Part shown: in pieces, positions 6,111-26,915 of the stretch | Layout of the letters: every line of letters starts with the position of its first letter | Numbering within the stretch: the stretch's first letter is position 1 | Source of the DNA: Solirubrobacterales bacterium | GTDB taxonomy: Bacteria; Actinomycetota; Thermoleophilia; Solirubrobacterales; 70-9 | Length of the DNA: 50,851 bases | Direction of reading: 5' to 3' | Assembly: GCA_025964255.1 (NCBI GenBank) | Contig: JAOPZF010000131.1 | Location: 1-50,851, forward strand | Program-made: the position numbers and the translations under genes | Notes under the pieces: model-generated | Database searches by the model: none | Seen by the model: only the letters and a program-made list of their open reading frames with translations | Told to the model about the DNA's origin: nothing

Positions 6111-6506
6111 ATGGCCGACTTCAAAGCCGGGGACGCGGTGCCGGAGCTGCGCGTCACGCCCGACAAGTACCTGACCAACCGCTACGCGGGTGCATCGGGC
6201 GACTACAACCCGATCCACATCGATGACGAGTTCGCCAAATCGGTCGGGCTCCCCGGCAACATTCTCCACGGCCTCTACGGGATGGGCCTGGTCGCCAAAG
6301 CGGCGGCACAGGGGCTCGCGCATGGCGATCCGCGAGCGCTGAAAAAACTGACCGTCCAGTTCCGCGGCATGGGCCTGCCGGAGCAGGAGATCGACGTCAC
6401 CGGGACCGTCAAAGAGGTCGACGGGAACCGGGTCACGGTGGATCTCGAGGCGCGCCAGGGCGACAACCGGATCATCCGCAACGCGGTCGCCGAGCTGGAG
6501 ATCTAG
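6111..6506 (+). CDS. MaoC-type dehydratase, catalytic subunit (HadB-like)
   Basis: A 131-residue hot-dog protein. The hydratase-2 motif is intact: ASGDYNPIHIDDEFAKSVGLPGNILHG, with the catalytic Asp and His of DYNPIH. It should dehydrate 3-hydroxyacyl-ACP or -CoA as the active partner of the upstream protein. The start at 6111 is chosen over an upstream in-frame codon because AGGGGGG lies 7 bases before it and MADFKAGDAVPELRV is the family N-terminus. The single-base gap to hadA-like indicates translational coupling. A family A hairpin follows about 15 bases after the stop. Confidence 0.85.
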   Translation: MADFKAGDAVPELRVTPDKYLTNRYAGASGDYNPIHIDDEFAKSVGLPGNILHGLYGMGLVAKAAAQGLAHGDPRALKKLTVQFRGMGLPEQEIDVTGTVKEVDGNRVTVDLEARQGDNRIIRNAVAELEI

Positions 6507-6522: not shown

Positions 6523-6591
6523 GGCGGGCCGGAATGGCCCCTTCCCTCACGAACTGCGGGGAGGTTCGTTCAGGGGCCATCCCGGCCCGCC
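6523..6591. repeat. Family A hairpin, copy 1 (intergenic, upstream of hrcA)
   Basis: Outer 19-base arms 6523-6541 and 6573-6591 pair with one mismatch. Inside are acgaac (6549-6554) and gttcgt (6564-6569) around the loop TGCGGGGAG. The loop and inner stem match the reverse-complement core AACAGCGGGGAGGTTCC of the other family A copies, while the outer arms are unrelated. A further gcggag/ctccgc pair (6506-6511, 6599-6604) may close it. It may act as a terminator or attenuator between hadB-like and hrcA. Confidence 0.8.
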
Positions 6592-8925: not shown

Positions 8926-9807
8926 GTGATCCGTCTAGCGGTGAGGTGTAAGCCGGACCAGGCAGAGATCGTGCTCGCCGAGCTGACCGTGCTGGCGCCG
9001 AATGGGGTCGAGGAGGAGCGCGGGCCGGGCTACGTCGAGTACGCGATCTACGGCGGCGAGGGCGAGCTGCCCGAGCTGGGCGAGATCGATGCGGTGGTCG
9101 GCGGCCGGCCGATCGAGGTCAGCTCGACAGTGATCCCCGATGGCTGGGCCGACCGCTGGCGCGACTTCCACAAACCGCTGCTCGTCGGCGGGCGGCTGTG
9201 GCTGCGGCCGAGCTGGGAGCCCGAGCGGGAGGGGGCGCTCGATGTCGTCGTCGACCCCGGCCAGGCTTTCGGAACCGGCGCCCACCCGACCACCCGCCTC
9301 TGCCTCGAGTACCTGCTGGAGCTCGCCGACGCCGGTGAGAACGATGGCGCCCTGACCGATCTCGGCACCGGCTCCGGAGTCCTGGCGATAGCCGCCGCCA
9401 AGCTCGGCTGGTCCCCGGTCACGGGTTACGACCACGAGGCGGCAGCCATCGAGGCGTCAGCCGCCAACGCCGCCGTCAACGACGTGACCATCGCTTTCCA
9501 CCGTCAGAACCTGCGCGAATCCCTGCCCGAGCTCGCCCCGACCTGCGTCGCCAACATGACCTCGCCGATCCTGAAGGCAATTGCGGGCCATCTGAGCGGG
9601 ATCTCGGGGGAGACTCGCCGGAACCTCCCCGCTGTTGTTCCGGCGAGTCTCCCCCGAGAGTCCGCCCCGGCGCTCCTCGTCCTTTCGGGAATCCTCCCTA
9701 ACGAGCTCGAGGAAGTCGCCGCCGCCTTCACCCCCGCCGGCTACCGCGAGCGAGACCGCCGTCAGATGGGCGACTGGGCGGCTCTTCTGCTCCGTCGGGA
9801 CATATAA
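8926..9807 (+). CDS. prmA: Ribosomal protein L11 methyltransferase PrmA
   Basis: A 293-residue SAM-dependent methyltransferase that trimethylates ribosomal protein L11. Signatures are WADRWRDFHKPLLVGGRLWLRPSW, DPGQAFGTGAHPTTRLCLEYL, SAM motif I LTDLGTGSGVLAIAAAKLG and post-motif CVANMTSPIL. The start is GTG at 8926. Between AIAGHLSG and APALLVLSGILPNE, where the family normally runs on with a short loop, about 20 extra residues are encoded exactly by a family A hairpin (9602-9659). The frame stays open, so the enzyme is probably functional with a surface insertion. hrcA-dnaJ-prmA order is typical. Confidence 0.93.
   Translation: MIRLAVRCKPDQAEIVLAELTVLAPNGVEEERGPGYVEYAIYGGEGELPELGEIDAVVGGRPIEVSSTVIPDGWADRWRDFHKPLLVGGRLWLRPSWEPEREGALDVVVDPGQAFGTGAHPTTRLCLEYLLELADAGENDGALTDLGTGSGVLAIAAAKLGWSPVTGYDHEAAAIEASAANAAVNDVTIAFHRQNLRESLPELAPTCVANMTSPILKAIAGHLSGISGETRRNLPAVVPASLPRESAPALLVLSGILPNELEEVAAAFTPAGYRERDRRQMGDWAALLLRRDI
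9602..9659. repeat. Family A hairpin, copy 2, inserted in frame in prmA
   Basis: A perfect 23-base stem: arm 9602-9624 is the exact reverse complement of 9637-9659. The 12-base loop is CTCCCCGCTGTT. The core GGAAC-loop-GTTCC is identical to copies 3 (opposite strand) and 4. In frame it encodes a Pro/Arg/Ser-rich peptide that includes RNLPAVVP (residues about 226-245 of PrmA). This is the longest perfect stem found in the window. Confidence 0.92.
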
Positions 9808-11184: not shown

Positions 11185-11228
11185 GTTTGGCTGGGTCCAT
11201 GCTCAACCGGTCAGCAAATACCGCGACC

Positions 11229-11234
11229 TACGAT
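11229..11234 (+). promoter_or_regulatory. TACGAT -10 hexamer for the vapB-like gene (leaderless start)
   Basis: TACGAT ends 6 bases before GTG 11241. It favours that start over the upstream in-frame ATG codons at 11187 and 11199. Confidence 0.5.
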
Positions 11235-11240
11235 CAGGAC

Positions 11241-11477
11241 GTGACCAAGATCGAGATCAACCTCAGCGGGCGGCTCCTGGGCCAGATCGATGAGTACGTG
11301 AAGCGCACCGGGGAGACCCGCGAGGGCTTCCTGCGACGTCTCGCCGTGACCGAGATCGCCGTCGAAGGCGCGATTCAACGCGAGGAATGGGACAAGGTGA
11401 TCGGGCGCTCACTCCCTGCCGACGTCGACTACGTCCAGATGATCCGGGAAGACCGTGACCGCGATAGCCGTCACTGA
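11241..11477 (+). CDS. Ribbon-helix-helix antitoxin (VapB-like)
   Basis: A 78-residue protein beginning VTKIEINLSGRLLGQIDEYVKRTGETREGFLRRLA, a typical ribbon-helix-helix DNA-binding N-terminus (beta strand KIEINL, then two helices), followed by an acidic tail that would contact the toxin. It overlaps the PIN-domain toxin gene by 23 bases, the standard vapBC layout, and probably autorepresses the pair. In-frame ATG codons lie at 11187 and 11199, but GTG 11241 places the strand at the N-terminus and sits 6 bases after a -10 hexamer. Confidence 0.78.
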   Translation: MTKIEINLSGRLLGQIDEYVKRTGETREGFLRRLAVTEIAVEGAIQREEWDKVIGRSLPADVDYVQMIREDRDRDSRH

Positions 11478-11877
11478 TCGGTTCCTTCTCGACGCGGGCA
11501 TCTGGATCGGCGCGATGCAGCCAGCCGCGCAGTACTACGAGGCGTGTCGCGCTCTTGCCGTCAATTCGAACTATCCGGTCGCCGCGCTCGATCTCACGAT
11601 GATCGAGATCGCGAACGTGCTCGGCGCCAGGGACCGCAGAAGGAGGGATGCCGTCAACCTCTGCCGTTTGATGATCGGTCGATGTCCGCATCTGTCTGCG
11701 GCGGCTGATCTGACGCTGATTCCGCTGACTCTCAAATTGGCGATCGAGCATCGACTCAGCGCCTACGACGCGTCCTACGTTGCCGCTGCATTCATCGAGG
11801 GCTGGACGCTCGTCAGCCTCGACATCAGGGACCTCGTCTCCAAGGGTCTGGCGATCACGCCCGACGCTGCCGTCTAA
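11455..11877 (+). CDS. PIN-domain ribonuclease toxin (VapC-like)
   Basis: A 140-residue PIN-domain protein. The expected acidic residues are D13 (FLLDAGIWI), E51 (TMIEIANVL), D105 (LSAYDASYVAAA) and D123 (LVSLDIRDL). These would bind Mg2+ or Mn2+ for RNA cleavage, so the toxin looks intact. The start is GTG at 11455, inside the antitoxin gene. The RNA target cannot be told from sequence. The pair separates murI from yqeY and is the only toxin-antitoxin module of this type in the window. Confidence 0.88.
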   Translation: MTAIAVTDRFLLDAGIWIGAMQPAAQYYEACRALAVNSNYPVAALDLTMIEIANVLGARDRRRRDAVNLCRLMIGRCPHLSAAADLTLIPLTLKLAIEHRLSAYDASYVAAAFIEGWTLVSLDIRDLVSKGLAITPDAAV

Positions 11878-24306: not shown

Positions 24307-25335
24307 ATGCGCATCGGAGTGTTGACCGGAGGTGGGGACTGTCCCGGGCTGAACGCGGTGATCCGCGCCGTCGTCCGTAAAGGCGTCGGCGTCCAGGGCC
24401 ACGAGTTCGTCGGCTACCGCGACGGCTGGCGCGGGCCGCTGGAGAACGACCACCGGCCGCTCGGGGTGCCCGAGGTGCGCGGCATCCTGCCCCGCGGCGG
24501 CACGATCCTCGGCTCCTCGCGGACCAACCCGTTCGCGGGCGACGGCGGGCCGGAGAAGATCGCCGCCAACCTGGAGGCCGCCGGGGTCGACGGGCTGATC
24601 GCGATCGGCGGCGAGGACACCCTCGGCGCGGCCTCGAAATTGCACTCCGAGCACGGGCTGAACATCATCGGCGTGCCGAAGACGATCGACAACGACCTCT
24701 CGGCGACCGACTACACCTTCGGCTTCGACACCGCCGTCAACGTCGCGATGGAGGCGATCGACCGGCTCCACACGACCGCCGACAGCCACCACCGGGTGCT
24801 GATCGCCGAGGTGATGGGACGGCACGCCGGCTGGATCGCCCTCCACGCCGGGCTCGCCGGCGGCGCCAACGCGATCCTGATTCCGGAGCACGAGTTCGAC
24901 ATCGACGCGGTCTGCGAGCTGGTCGGCCGCCGCTTCGCCAGCCACTTCGCTCCGATCATCGTCGTCGCCGAGGGCGCCAACCCGATCGGCGGCATGCCGC
25001 AACCCGACAACGCCAAGACCGACTCCTTCGGCCACGCCCGCCTCGGCGGCATCGGCCACTGGCTCGAGGCCGAGATCGAGCGGCGCACCGGCAAAGAGAC
25101 CCGCGCGACGGTGCTCGGCCACGTCCAGCGTGGCGGAACCCCGACGGCGTTCGACCGAGTCCTCGCGACGCGGTTCGGATTGCACGCGATTGATGCGGTC
25201 GACCAGGGGCGGTGGGGGACGATGACGGCGTTGCGAGGGACCGATATCGAACTCGTTCAGCTGACCGAGGCGACTGCCGAGCTGAAGACGGTTCCTGAGT
25301 CTCTCTATGCGGAGTCCGAAGTCTTCTTTGGCTGA
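24307..25335 (+). CDS. pfk: 6-phosphofructokinase, probably PPi-dependent type
   Basis: A 342-residue group III phosphofructokinase acting on fructose 6-phosphate in glycolysis. The N-terminal loop is GVLTGGGDCPGLNAVIRAVV, and the catalytic loop is VPKTIDNDLSATDYTFGFDTA. The donor-determining position holds Asp: GGEDT (residues 101-105, D104), with Lys125 in PKTIDND. ATP-dependent enzymes have Gly at the first site, while actinobacterial PPi enzymes such as that of Amycolatopsis methanolica carry the Asp/Lys pair, so PPi is the likely donor. That is inference from known family rules. The other sugar-phosphate motifs EVMGRHAGWIALHAG and LGHVQRGGTPTAFDR are intact. A family A fragment and a full copy follow its stop. 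Confidence 0.93.
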   Translation: MRIGVLTGGGDCPGLNAVIRAVVRKGVGVQGHEFVGYRDGWRGPLENDHRPLGVPEVRGILPRGGTILGSSRTNPFAGDGGPEKIAANLEAAGVDGLIAIGGEDTLGAASKLHSEHGLNIIGVPKTIDNDLSATDYTFGFDTAVNVAMEAIDRLHTTADSHHRVLIAEVMGRHAGWIALHAGLAGGANAILIPEHEFDIDAVCELVGRRFASHFAPIIVVAEGANPIGGMPQPDNAKTDSFGHARLGGIGHWLEAEIERRTGKETRATVLGHVQRGGTPTAFDRVLATRFGLHAIDAVDQGRWGTMTALRGTDIELVQLTEATAELKTVPESLYAESEVFFG

Positions 25336-25377: not shown

Positions 25378-25443
25378 GACGCCACGAGGGTGACCTTCCG
25401 GAACAACAGCGGGGAGGTTCCTCCAGGTCACCCTCGTGGCGTC
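25378..25443. repeat. Family A hairpin, copy 3, at the 5' end of the lipoprotein gene
   Basis: Perfect 18-base outer arms (25378-25395 and 25426-25443) and inner GGAAC (25400-25404) / GTTCC (25417-25421) flank the loop AACAGCGGGGAG, the exact reverse complement of the loop in copies 2 and 4. The arms resemble those of copy 4 in part (shared GGGTGACC). The GTG at 25390 lies inside the left arm. Confidence 0.9.
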
Positions 25444-25899
25444 CGCTGCGGGGCCGGGGTTCTGGCCGCGGCCATGATCGCCCTAGGGATCGTGGGTTGC
25501 GGAGGGGCCGATTCGCAGGGAGCGACGGTGAGCGTCTACGTGGGAGCGTCGTTGTGCAAGGCGGCGAAAGGGGAGCTTGCGGCGCATGGGGCGAGCGCCG
25601 GGCACTTCAAGATCGCCGCCAGATGCTTGGCGCCGAGTGAGAAGGCTGGGGGCGGCGTGGACCTGGCTACCGATGGCTCCAATGCGCGGCGAGCGACTTC
25701 GGACACCAGCGCGGTGGCGACGCTTGAAGCTCCCGGTCCCGGCACGAAGTTCAGCCGCTCGATCCTCGAATCCGCCGGCATTCCCCTGCTGACCTCCTCG
25801 TCCGGCAGCAAAGCCATGAAGGCCGTCATCGAAGCCGTCGAATCCGCGGGCAGCTCCAGTCCGCGAAGCAAGGTGCGCGAAGCCCTCGAACCCAGCTGA
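25390..25899 (+). CDS. Putative lipoprotein of unknown function
   Basis: A 169-residue product if translation begins at GTG 25390; ATG 25474 is the only later start that keeps part of the signal. A hydrophobic stretch GAGVLAAAMIALGIVGC ends in a lipobox-like LGIVGC (Cys37), predicting a lipid-anchored exported protein. The mature part (VSVYVGASLCKAAKGELAAHG, then SRSILESAGIPLLTSSSG) faintly recalls periplasmic ligand-binding proteins, but is too short for one, so it may be a truncated member. Copies 3 and 4 of the family A hairpin flank it in inverted orientation, and copy 3 supplies the first ~18 codons. Glutamate is mostly GAA, as in other exported proteins here. Confidence 0.6.
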   Translation: MTFRNNSGEVPPGHPRGVRCGAGVLAAAMIALGIVGCGGADSQGATVSVYVGASLCKAAKGELAAHGASAGHFKIAARCLAPSEKAGGGVDLATDGSNARRATSDTSAVATLEAPGPGTKFSRSILESAGIPLLTSSSGSKAMKAVIEAVESAGSSSPRSKVREALEPS

Positions 25900-25905
25900 G
25901 GGGCC

Positions 25906-25971
25906 GGGTCCCCAAGGGTGACCCGCAGGAACCTCCCCGCTGTTGTTCCGGAGGGTCACCCTTGTGGACCC
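25906..25971. repeat. Family A hairpin, copy 4, just after the lipoprotein gene
   Basis: Outer 19-base arms (25906-25924 and 25953-25971) pair with one mismatch. Inner GGAAC (25928-25932) and GTTCC (25945-25949) flank CTCCCCGCTGTT. It is inverted relative to copy 3. It starts 7 bases after the lipoprotein stop and fills most of the 107-base gap to the epimerase gene on the other strand. Confidence 0.9.
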
Positions 25972-26006: not shown

Positions 26007-26915
26007 CTACCCGACGAGGTCTCTTAAGGCTCCGTCGATCTCCGGATACTTGAAGGCGTAGCCCAGCTCCTCGGTCCGCCGCGGCAGCACCCGCTGGCCG
26101 CCCTGCGCGACCTTCCCGAACTCTTTCCCGAATTTCACCTCGACCGCGATCCCCGGGATCGGCAGCGCCGCCGGTCGTCCCAGAGCCTTCCCCAGCGCCT
26201 TCGACCAGTCCTTGTTGGTGACCGGGTTGGGCGCGGTTGCGTTCATCACGCCGCTCGCGCTCTCGGTGTCGAGCGCCCAGGCGAGGATGCCGACCTCGTC
26301 GGAGAGATGGATCCAAGGGACCCATTGCTTGCCACCCGCGAGCGGGCCGCCGAGGCCGAGCTTGAAGGGGAGGAGGAGCTCGCCGAGGATCCCGCCCTCG
26401 GTCTCCATCACCTGTCCGGTCCGGACGATCACCAGCCGCACGCCGGCCGCCTCGACCTCGTGCGCCGAGCGCTCCCACTCGACGCAGACCGAGGCATCGA
26501 AGCCCTTGCCGGGCGCGCTGGTCTCGTCGAGCGTCTCGTCGCCGCGGTTGCCGTAGTAGCCGACGGCCGACTGGCTGACCATCACCTTCGGCTTCGTCGC
26601 CAGGCTCTCGATCGTTCCGACCAGGTTGTGGGTCGCGACCTTGCGCGAGTCCATGATCTCCCGTTTCGCTGCGTCGGTCCAGCGCTGGTTTATCTTCTCG
26701 CCGACCAGGTTGACGACCCCGTCGACGCCTTCGAAGGCCGCCGCGTCGGGGCGTTCGAGGGCCGGCTCCCAGGCGTGCCAGGTGATCTGCGGCCGCGCCT
26801 CGCGCGCCTTGTCGGGACTGCGCGTCAGTCCGACGACCTCGTCCCCTCGTCCCAGAAGCTCGTCACAGAGCGCCTTGCCGATCCTGCCGCTGGCGCCCGT
26901 GACGAGAACTTTCAT
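26007..26915 (-). CDS. TIGR01777-family NAD(P)-binding epimerase/dehydratase-like protein
   Basis: A 302-residue extended short-chain dehydrogenase-like protein. The Rossmann motif is MKVLVTGASGRIGKALCDELLGRG. Family signatures are VVNLVGEKINQRWTDAAKREIMDSRKVAT, QSAVGYYGNRGDETLDE, WVPWIHLSDEVGILAWAL, VMNATAPNPVTNKDWSKALG and the C-terminal RRTEELGYAFKYPEIDGALRDL. The molecular function is unproven; some relatives affect cell division. It lies 19 bases downstream of the malic enzyme gene on the same strand, so they are probably co-transcribed. Confidence 0.9.
   Translation of the reverse strand: MKVLVTGASGRIGKALCDELLGRGDEVVGLTRSPDKAREARPQITWHAWEPALERPDAAAFEGVDGVVNLVGEKINQRWTDAAKREIMDSRKVATHNLVGTIESLATKPKVMVSQSAVGYYGNRGDETLDETSAPGKGFDASVCVEWERSAHEVEAAGVRLVIVRTGQVMETEGGILGELLLPFKLGLGGPLAGGKQWVPWIHLSDEVGILAWALDTESASGVMNATAPNPVTNKDWSKALGKALGRPAALPIPGIAVEVKFGKEFGKVAQGGQRVLPRRTEELGYAFKYPEIDGALRDLVG

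What the first reader, a model, noticed from the sequence alone, without database searches (positions are those of the whole stretch)
9602..9659. Palindrome inserted in frame inside prmA
A perfect 23-bp stem-loop encodes about 20 extra residues between HLSG and APALLVLSG in PrmA, at a place where the family has only a short loop, without breaking the frame. This parallels Rickettsia palindromic elements, which insert into genes and are translated. The core can be read as RNLPAVVP in one orientation and as RNNSGEVP in the other, with no stop in either, which would suit repeated insertion in genes.
Basis: partly seen in the sequence, partly recalled or inferred. Interest (0 to 1): 0.72.

Follow-up and report, generated by a model that had tools for sequence, protein, structure and literature searches.

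The report
Palindrome family spliced into bacterial genes
A 60-70 base self-complementary DNA hairpin is scattered through the genomes of one group of uncultured soil bacteria, sits in frame inside essential genes such as prmA, and stays perfectly paired while its sequence changes, so it behaves like a small DNA passenger that host proteins carry as extra surface loops.

Summary
The palindrome is real: window 9602-9659, 23 perfect base pairs around a 12-base loop, in frame in prmA (residues 226-245). It belongs to a dispersed family, with three more copies in this window. I collected 133 copies from 13 genomes. Clear copies occur only in two sister genera of Solirubrobacterales MAGs (13 of 232 genomes of the order). 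Copies lie mostly just after stop codons; 48 lie inside genes, all without stops and in all six coding modes (prmA, cysS, an Lhr-type helicase, menD, fbiC and others). Arms differ between species at the same site (about 65% cross-pairing) but pair at 91-100% within each copy. Mismatches show no G-U preference, and the core variant is largely clade-specific. Best explanation: a REP/RPE-like mobile palindrome, tolerated as surface loops, whose arms are re-perfected and core flipped by DNA template switching. It is not an RPE or a GTAG/CGTC REP by the features tested. The mobilising enzyme, movement itself and translation of the insert are not shown. New variant of a known kind.

The parts
9602..9659 (+). 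Element copy in prmA: perfect 23-bp stem (9602-9624 / 9637-9659), type I core; core strand CTCCCCGCTGTT is on + (sense to prmA)
9596..9665 (+). Outer limit of the imperfect palindrome (29-nt arms, 93% complementary)
9625..9636 (+). Loop CTCCCCGCTGTT, the most conserved part of the family
8926..9807 (+). Host gene prmA (ribosomal protein L11 methyltransferase), 293 aa, insert = residues 226-245
6523..6591 (-). Second family member (type II core, core strand on -), between a MaoC-like gene (stop at 6506) and hrcA (start 6630)
25378..25443 (-). Third family member (core strand on -), intergenic, 42 nt after the stop of gene 24307-25335
25906..25971 (+). Fourth family member (core strand on +), intergenic, 6 nt after a predicted gene 25528-25899 and 35 nt beyond the 3' end of the convergent gene 26007-26915

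Best explanation
The palindrome is one copy of a dispersed, REP/RPE-like palindromic DNA element of about 55-77 nt that is confined to two sister genera of uncultured Solirubrobacterales. It spread through the genome (inferred from its dispersal and presence/absence at orthologous sites), persists mainly just after stop codons, and persists inside genes only where it keeps the frame and lands in a tolerant surface loop, where it is most likely translated (inferred). Once in place it is inherited with its site, but its two arms keep correcting each other and the core between them sometimes inverts. The most likely process is polymerase template switching between the arms during replication: it copies one arm onto the other and flips the spacer. 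The core also evolves in concert among copies of a clade, which suggests conversion between copies or continued spread. In prmA the result is about 20 extra residues between a helix and a strand, with no obvious benefit to the host. Shown here: the family, its range, frame conservation, presence/absence, maintained pairing, core flips, clade-specific core. Inferred: mobility, template switching, translation, neutrality.
For: Repeat family: 9 matches in the own genome, matches by covariance model in all 12 genomes of the genus, although the one in G004 is weak, and in 2 of 3 genomes of genus g9; 133 copies collected. Presence/absence at orthologous sites: prmA filled in 7 genomes, short loop in others; helicase site filled in G000, G006, G010, G002, G009, short in G008, G005, G007, G003, G004. 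Frame: 48 genic copies with no stop, six coding modes. Maintained pairing: 92.3% of cells paired against 73.3% in shuffles and 35-54% in slid versions, 18 of 24 pairs with double changes; at the same site own arms pair at 95% (prmA), 93% (cysS), 100% (helicase) while one species' arm pairs with another species' partner arm at only 65%, 64% and 67%. No RNA signature: in transcript sense A-C mismatches 20, G-U 12. Core inversion at orthologous sites: G006 and G009 in prmA, G003 in cysS and fbiC. Outer arms follow the site (0.63 against 0.53 between clades, P = 6e-15) while the core variant follows the clade (AAC in 78 of 78 copies of clade A), on a tree of PrmA + CysS. Template switching is known to homogenise arms and invert spacers in coding DNA (PMC8604942) and to maintain hairpins (PMC8794818).
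Against: No mobilising enzyme was found; the Y1 transposase family that moves REPs is absent from all 12 genomes of the genus. No clean empty site from a very close relative was available, so target duplication and insertion length are unresolved; in cysS and at a second helicase site the insert may partly replace native sequence. Intergenic copies show an orientation bias relative to the upstream gene (38 against 11), which a purely passive element would not predict. Template switching is inferred from patterns, not observed. Repeated insertion into the same tolerant sites could explain some of the flips.
Confidence: 0.68

Rival explanations
1. The element is primarily a functional RNA hairpin (bidirectional terminator or mRNA 3'-end stabiliser with a protein-binding loop) selected for pairing at gene ends; genic copies are by-products.
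For: 52 of 77 nearby stop codons lie 0-30 nt before an element; divergent gene pairs are depleted (4 of 61); upstream genes are mostly antisense to the CTCCCC strand (38 against 11). Strong stem covariation. Very stable fold.
Against: Mismatches show no G-U preference in transcript sense (12 G-U, 20 A-C). Genic copies occur in both orientations, inside essential genes, and are as well paired. No Rfam family reaches threshold. REP-type repeats also sit preferentially downstream of genes (PMC3733652), so position alone does not discriminate.
Confidence: 0.2
2. Independent insertions at the same tolerant loops, recent enough to be still perfect, explain the variable arms and opposite core orientations; there is no arm-to-arm correction.
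For: Different palindrome families do occupy the same sites: G010 prmA carries another palindrome and the fbiC site in G002 and G009 carries a hairpin with an unrelated loop.
Against: Outer arms at orthologous sites are significantly more alike than at other sites, even between clades, and the MMPL-gene site keeps a similar outer stem around type I or type II cores, which fits descent with change.
Confidence: 0.12
3. The hairpin is skipped by the ribosome (translational bypassing, as reported for palindromes in Magnusiomyces mitochondria), so it is not part of the protein.
For: Very stable hairpins inside essential genes; precedent cited in PMC6649704.
Against: Bypassing would not require frame or stop-free sequence, yet all 48 genic copies are open, and none of 19 genic type II copies uses the one sense frame that contains TGA (about 0.03 by chance, copies not all independent).
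Confidence: 0.04
4. Assembly or binning artefact of the MAG.
For: Own genome is a MAG with 6.5% contamination; some contigs end inside elements and one orthologous site is an assembly gap.
Against: The same family and the same insertion sites recur in 13 separately binned genomes.
Confidence: 0.02

Closest known systems
Rickettsia palindromic elements (RPE; Ogata et al. 2000, 2002, as summarised in PMC2229807 and PMC3733652)
   Same: Dispersed palindromes, intergenic and in frame inside conserved protein genes, restricted to one bacterial group
   Different: Unrelated host phylum; about 55-77 nt instead of 105-146 nt; no CGTC tag; arms stay paired, whereas RPEs were reported to lose repeat identity over time (PMC6649704)
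REP elements (GTAG and CGTC super-families, RAYT-mobilised; PMC3733652)
   Same: Short palindromes preferentially downstream of genes and between unidirectional or convergent genes, some inside genes, some supplying a stop codon
   Different: No GTAG or CGTC tag above chance; no Y1/RAYT transposase in the genus; stems of about 18-30 bp instead of 5-13 bp
Coding palindromes in mitochondrial genes of Nematomorpha (PMC6649704)
   Same: Palindromes inside protein genes whose arms are kept identical, gained and lost between species; template switching proposed
   Different: No shared core sequence or dispersed family described there; arms up to 284 bp encode conserved protein regions, here they encode added loops
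Coding palindromes of Wolbachia (Ogata 2005) and Methanocaldococcus jannaschii (Suyama 2005), known here only from titles cited in PMC2229807
   Same: Palindromic repeats with coding potential
   Different: Different organisms; sequences and details not compared here

Membership tests
Rickettsia palindromic elements (RPE) | Dispersed palindrome family found both between and inside genes, in frame | tested here: met
   133 copies, 48 genic and open
Rickettsia palindromic elements (RPE) | CGTC tetranucleotide at one end (described for R. conorii RPE sequences, PMC3733652) | tested here: not met
   39 of 133 with CGTC near an end against 43 expected at random positions
Rickettsia palindromic elements (RPE) | Size 105-146 bp (PMC2229807) | tested here: not met
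   54-77 nt stem-to-stem in all but one copy
Rickettsia palindromic elements (RPE) | Arms decay with time (PMC6649704 citing Claverie and Ogata 2003) | tested here: not met
   Arms at orthologous sites pair at 91-100% although they differ between species
Rickettsia palindromic elements (RPE) | Sequence relationship to RPE families in Rickettsia | not tested
   RPE sequences were not fetched. The core pattern scan of 84,980 species hit only Solirubrobacterales or unclassified Actinomycetota MAGs
REP/RAYT system | GTAG at one end | tested here: not met
   13 of 133 against 14.3 expected
REP/RAYT system | Y1/HUH transposase (PF01797) in the genome | tested here: not met
   0 of 12 genomes of the genus; the only g9 genome sampled, a non-carrier, also has none; control genomes positive
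REP/RAYT system | Preferential location downstream of genes, divergent intergenic regions avoided | tested here: met
   ++22, +-19, --16, -+4; 52 of 77 stops 0-30 nt before an element
Arm-homogenised inverted repeat (template switching) | Compensatory arm changes and spacer inversion at orthologous sites | tested here: met
Arm-homogenised inverted repeat (template switching) | Direct observation of a template-switch event between parent and offspring | not testable with these tools
   needs population or mutation-accumulation sequencing
MITE | Target-site duplication | tested here: inconclusive
   No close enough empty sites; cysS and second helicase site suggest partial replacement

The most novel reading that the evidence does not exclude
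A new class of mobile palindrome in which only the short core is conserved and the stem is remade at each site: a trans-acting factor specific to each clade recognises the CCTCCCCGC core, keeps all copies in a genome on the same core variant, and a replication-linked copying step keeps the arms perfectly complementary, so the element persists in genes because its pairing, not its sequence, is inherited.
Probability: 0.15. Interest if true: 0.85.

Novelty: new variant of a known kind. Interest (0 to 1): 0.66.

Why it matters
Protein-coding palindromic repeats are best known from Rickettsia; the searches made of the open-access library found no report for Solirubrobacterales. Here is a family in free-living soil Actinomycetota with many copies, filled and short sites among sister species, and three features that make long-standing questions testable: what keeps hairpin arms complementary without RNA selection, how often spacers invert, and how essential enzymes gain translated loops from non-coding repeats. 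It also warns that strong stem covariation alone, as seen here in coding DNA, need not mean a functional RNA.

Tried and rejected
Rfam: nothing at gathering threshold; relaxed matches are miRNA hairpin models below threshold. RAYT transposase: absent. Phage and plasmid records: no match. Viral contigs: two hits for the type II core, both the same stretch without any palindrome, so chance. Inverted duplication of target as the origin of the unique outer arms: suggested by the prmA and helicase sites, but conserved G positions at the stem ends and the lack of close empty sites left it undecided. A search for clean empty sites in eight more genes gave mostly species too distant for base-level junctions. 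A first coding-frame classifier was too weak and was replaced. A strict test that core paralogues are closer than orthologues failed on average (39% closer) because two core types coexist; the clade-fixed variant is the evidence kept. The CysS structure model is poor (pLDDT 60) and only weakly supports a disordered insert.

Full report
OBSERVATION. Window 9602-9659 holds tctcgggggagactcgccggaac-CTCCCCGCTGTT-gttccggcgagtctcccccgaga, a perfect 23-bp stem with a 12-nt loop; the imperfect stem reaches 9596-9665. As RNA it folds at -62 kcal/mol, z = -8 against dinucleotide shuffles. It lies in frame in prmA (8926-9807; Pfam PrmA; closest solved relatives are the PrmA entries 1ufk/2nxc) and encodes residues 226-245.

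IT IS A FAMILY. A search of the own genome with the 118-nt region found nine matches, some to the reverse strand of the same place. A covariance model built from 21 copies finds members in all 12 genomes of the genus (in G004 only one weak match) and in 2 of 3 genomes of a second genus g9. Over the whole order 13 of 232 genomes match at E <= 1e-5, all in those two genera. An exact scan for the type I core over one genome for each of 84,980 species hit 17 stretches, all in Solirubrobacterales or unclassified Actinomycetota MAGs. From the loci fetched I collected 133 copies. Two core types occur: type I, GGAAC[CTCCCCGCTGTT]GTTCC with the stem running up to the loop, and type II, a 28-29-nt loop of the form GAACGAACCTCCCCGC(T/A)GTT(C)GTGAGAGA. 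The window has four members: 6523-6591, 9602-9659, 25378-25443 and 25906-25971; they are the only strong hairpins in it.

WHERE COPIES LIE. A small gene finder trained on these loci puts 64 copies between genes, 21 across gene ends and 48 inside genes, although about 90% of the loci is coding. Of 77 stop codons near a non-genic copy, 52 lie 0-30 nt before it; divergent neighbours are rare (4 of 61), and the CTCCCC strand is usually antisense to the single upstream gene (38 against 11). In some type II copies the TGA of the core serves as the host gene's stop (for example G011 C142, G008 C136). Genic copies read without stop in all six modes (NLPAVV, PPRCCS, SPLLS, NSGEV, QQRGGS, TAGR). Hosts include PrmA, CysS, an Lhr-type helicase, MMPL transporter, MenD, FbiC, a CofE-like ligase, NuoG-like, CopD-like and others; apart from PrmA (Pfam) these names are recognised from the translated sequences, not from a library search.

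ORTHOLOGOUS SITES. In prmA the insert is present in G000, G006, G011, G001, G009, G031 and G026; G005, G007, G008, G004, G002 and the other genera have a short loop; G010 has a different palindrome there and G003 a possible remnant. cysS carries it in 12 of the genomes examined but not in G004 or G019; the helicase site is filled in five and short in others. The core is inverted relative to the gene in G006 and G009 (prmA) and in G003 (cysS, fbiC). A PrmA + CysS tree supports clade A (G000, G005-G008, G011; 100%), clade C (G002, G009; 100%), clade B (G001, G003, G010; 82%) and a g9 clade (78%).

WHAT KEEPS IT PALINDROMIC. Across 21 copies, 18 of 24 stem pairs show changes on both sides and 92.3% of cells pair, against 73.3% in shuffles and at most 54% when slid. 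At one site, an arm pairs with its own partner at 91-100% but with the partner arm of another species at 64-67% in prmA, cysS and the helicase (82% in the MMPL gene): the arms have changed together. If RNA structure were selected, G-U mismatches should outnumber A-C in the transcript; the counts are 12 G-U and 20 A-C (small numbers). Outer arms follow the site (identity 0.63 against 0.53 between clades, P = 6e-15; pairs are not independent), whereas the three bases before the loop largely follow the clade (AAC in 78 of 78 clade A copies; mostly ACC/GCC in clade C; AGC in most g9 copies; AGC and AAC mixed in clade B). In the MMPL gene a similar outer stem surrounds a type I core in G000 and G006 and a type II core in G008 and G011. 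Template switching between inverted-repeat arms is known to homogenise arms and invert spacers in coding DNA (PMC8604942) and to maintain hairpins (PMC8794818); it accounts for two of the three patterns. The clade-wide core needs conversion between copies, continued spread or a shared binding factor; this is not resolved.

EFFECT ON THE HOST PROTEIN. In the AlphaFold model of PrmA (mean pLDDT 85) residues 225-249 are mostly coil, with pLDDT near 50 at residues 231-240, between helix 213-224 and strand 250-256, both confident. The CysS model is poor overall (60) with the insert as low-confidence coil. A tolerated surface loop is therefore plausible; translation is not shown.

COMPARISON. It works like RPEs (in-frame coding palindromes) but fails features described for them: CGTC tag, size, and decay of arms (PMC2229807, PMC3733652, PMC6649704). 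It is not a GTAG REP with a RAYT: no tag, no Y1 transposase. The maintained arms are closest to the mitochondrial coding palindromes of Nematomorpha (PMC6649704), for which no dispersed core is described. I rate it a new variant of a known kind.

LIMITS. All genomes are draft MAGs; palindromes break assemblies, so copy numbers are lower bounds. Gene calls are mine. Copies are related, so counts are not independent events. The mobilising enzyme, movement and translation are not shown.

Noticed in passing
L252:3593-3641, L295:1477-1525, L307:1902-1950, L263:1552-1594, L130:1876-1924: A second palindrome family of the same genus, GTTGATGGGCCGAAAA...TTTTCGGCCCATCAAC, with the outer stem conserved and the centre variable.
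   Followed up: no
L212:321-369, L214:1304-1354, L311:986-1028, L023:407-449: Another hairpin family with stems GCGTTCGCA(C/G)TT... and very short loops.
   Followed up: no
L036:1632-1668 (prmA of G010); L003:36-82; L130:1259-1307: Palindromes around GT(C/A)ACCC...GGGT(G/T)AC; one sits at the same prmA site as the element, so different palindromes use the same tolerant loop.
   Followed up: partly
L314:377-457 and L315:354-418 (fbiC of G002 and G009): Long hairpins with an unrelated loop (CTCGCC..GGCTC) at the fbiC site where other genomes carry the CCTCCCCGC core.
   Followed up: partly
L282 (fbiC of G011); G000:C251:1-42; G001:C235 end: Assembly gap of N exactly at an element site, and contigs that end inside elements: palindromes break the assemblies, so copies are undercounted.
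   Followed up: no
G004 and G019: Two genomes inside or next to the carrier clade have almost no copies and short cysS loops, useful for finding a missing mobilising factor.
   Followed up: no
window 11199-11877: Small antitoxin-like gene (HicB-like C-terminal match) followed by an overlapping gene with a weak PIN-domain match, a likely toxin-antitoxin pair.
   Followed up: no
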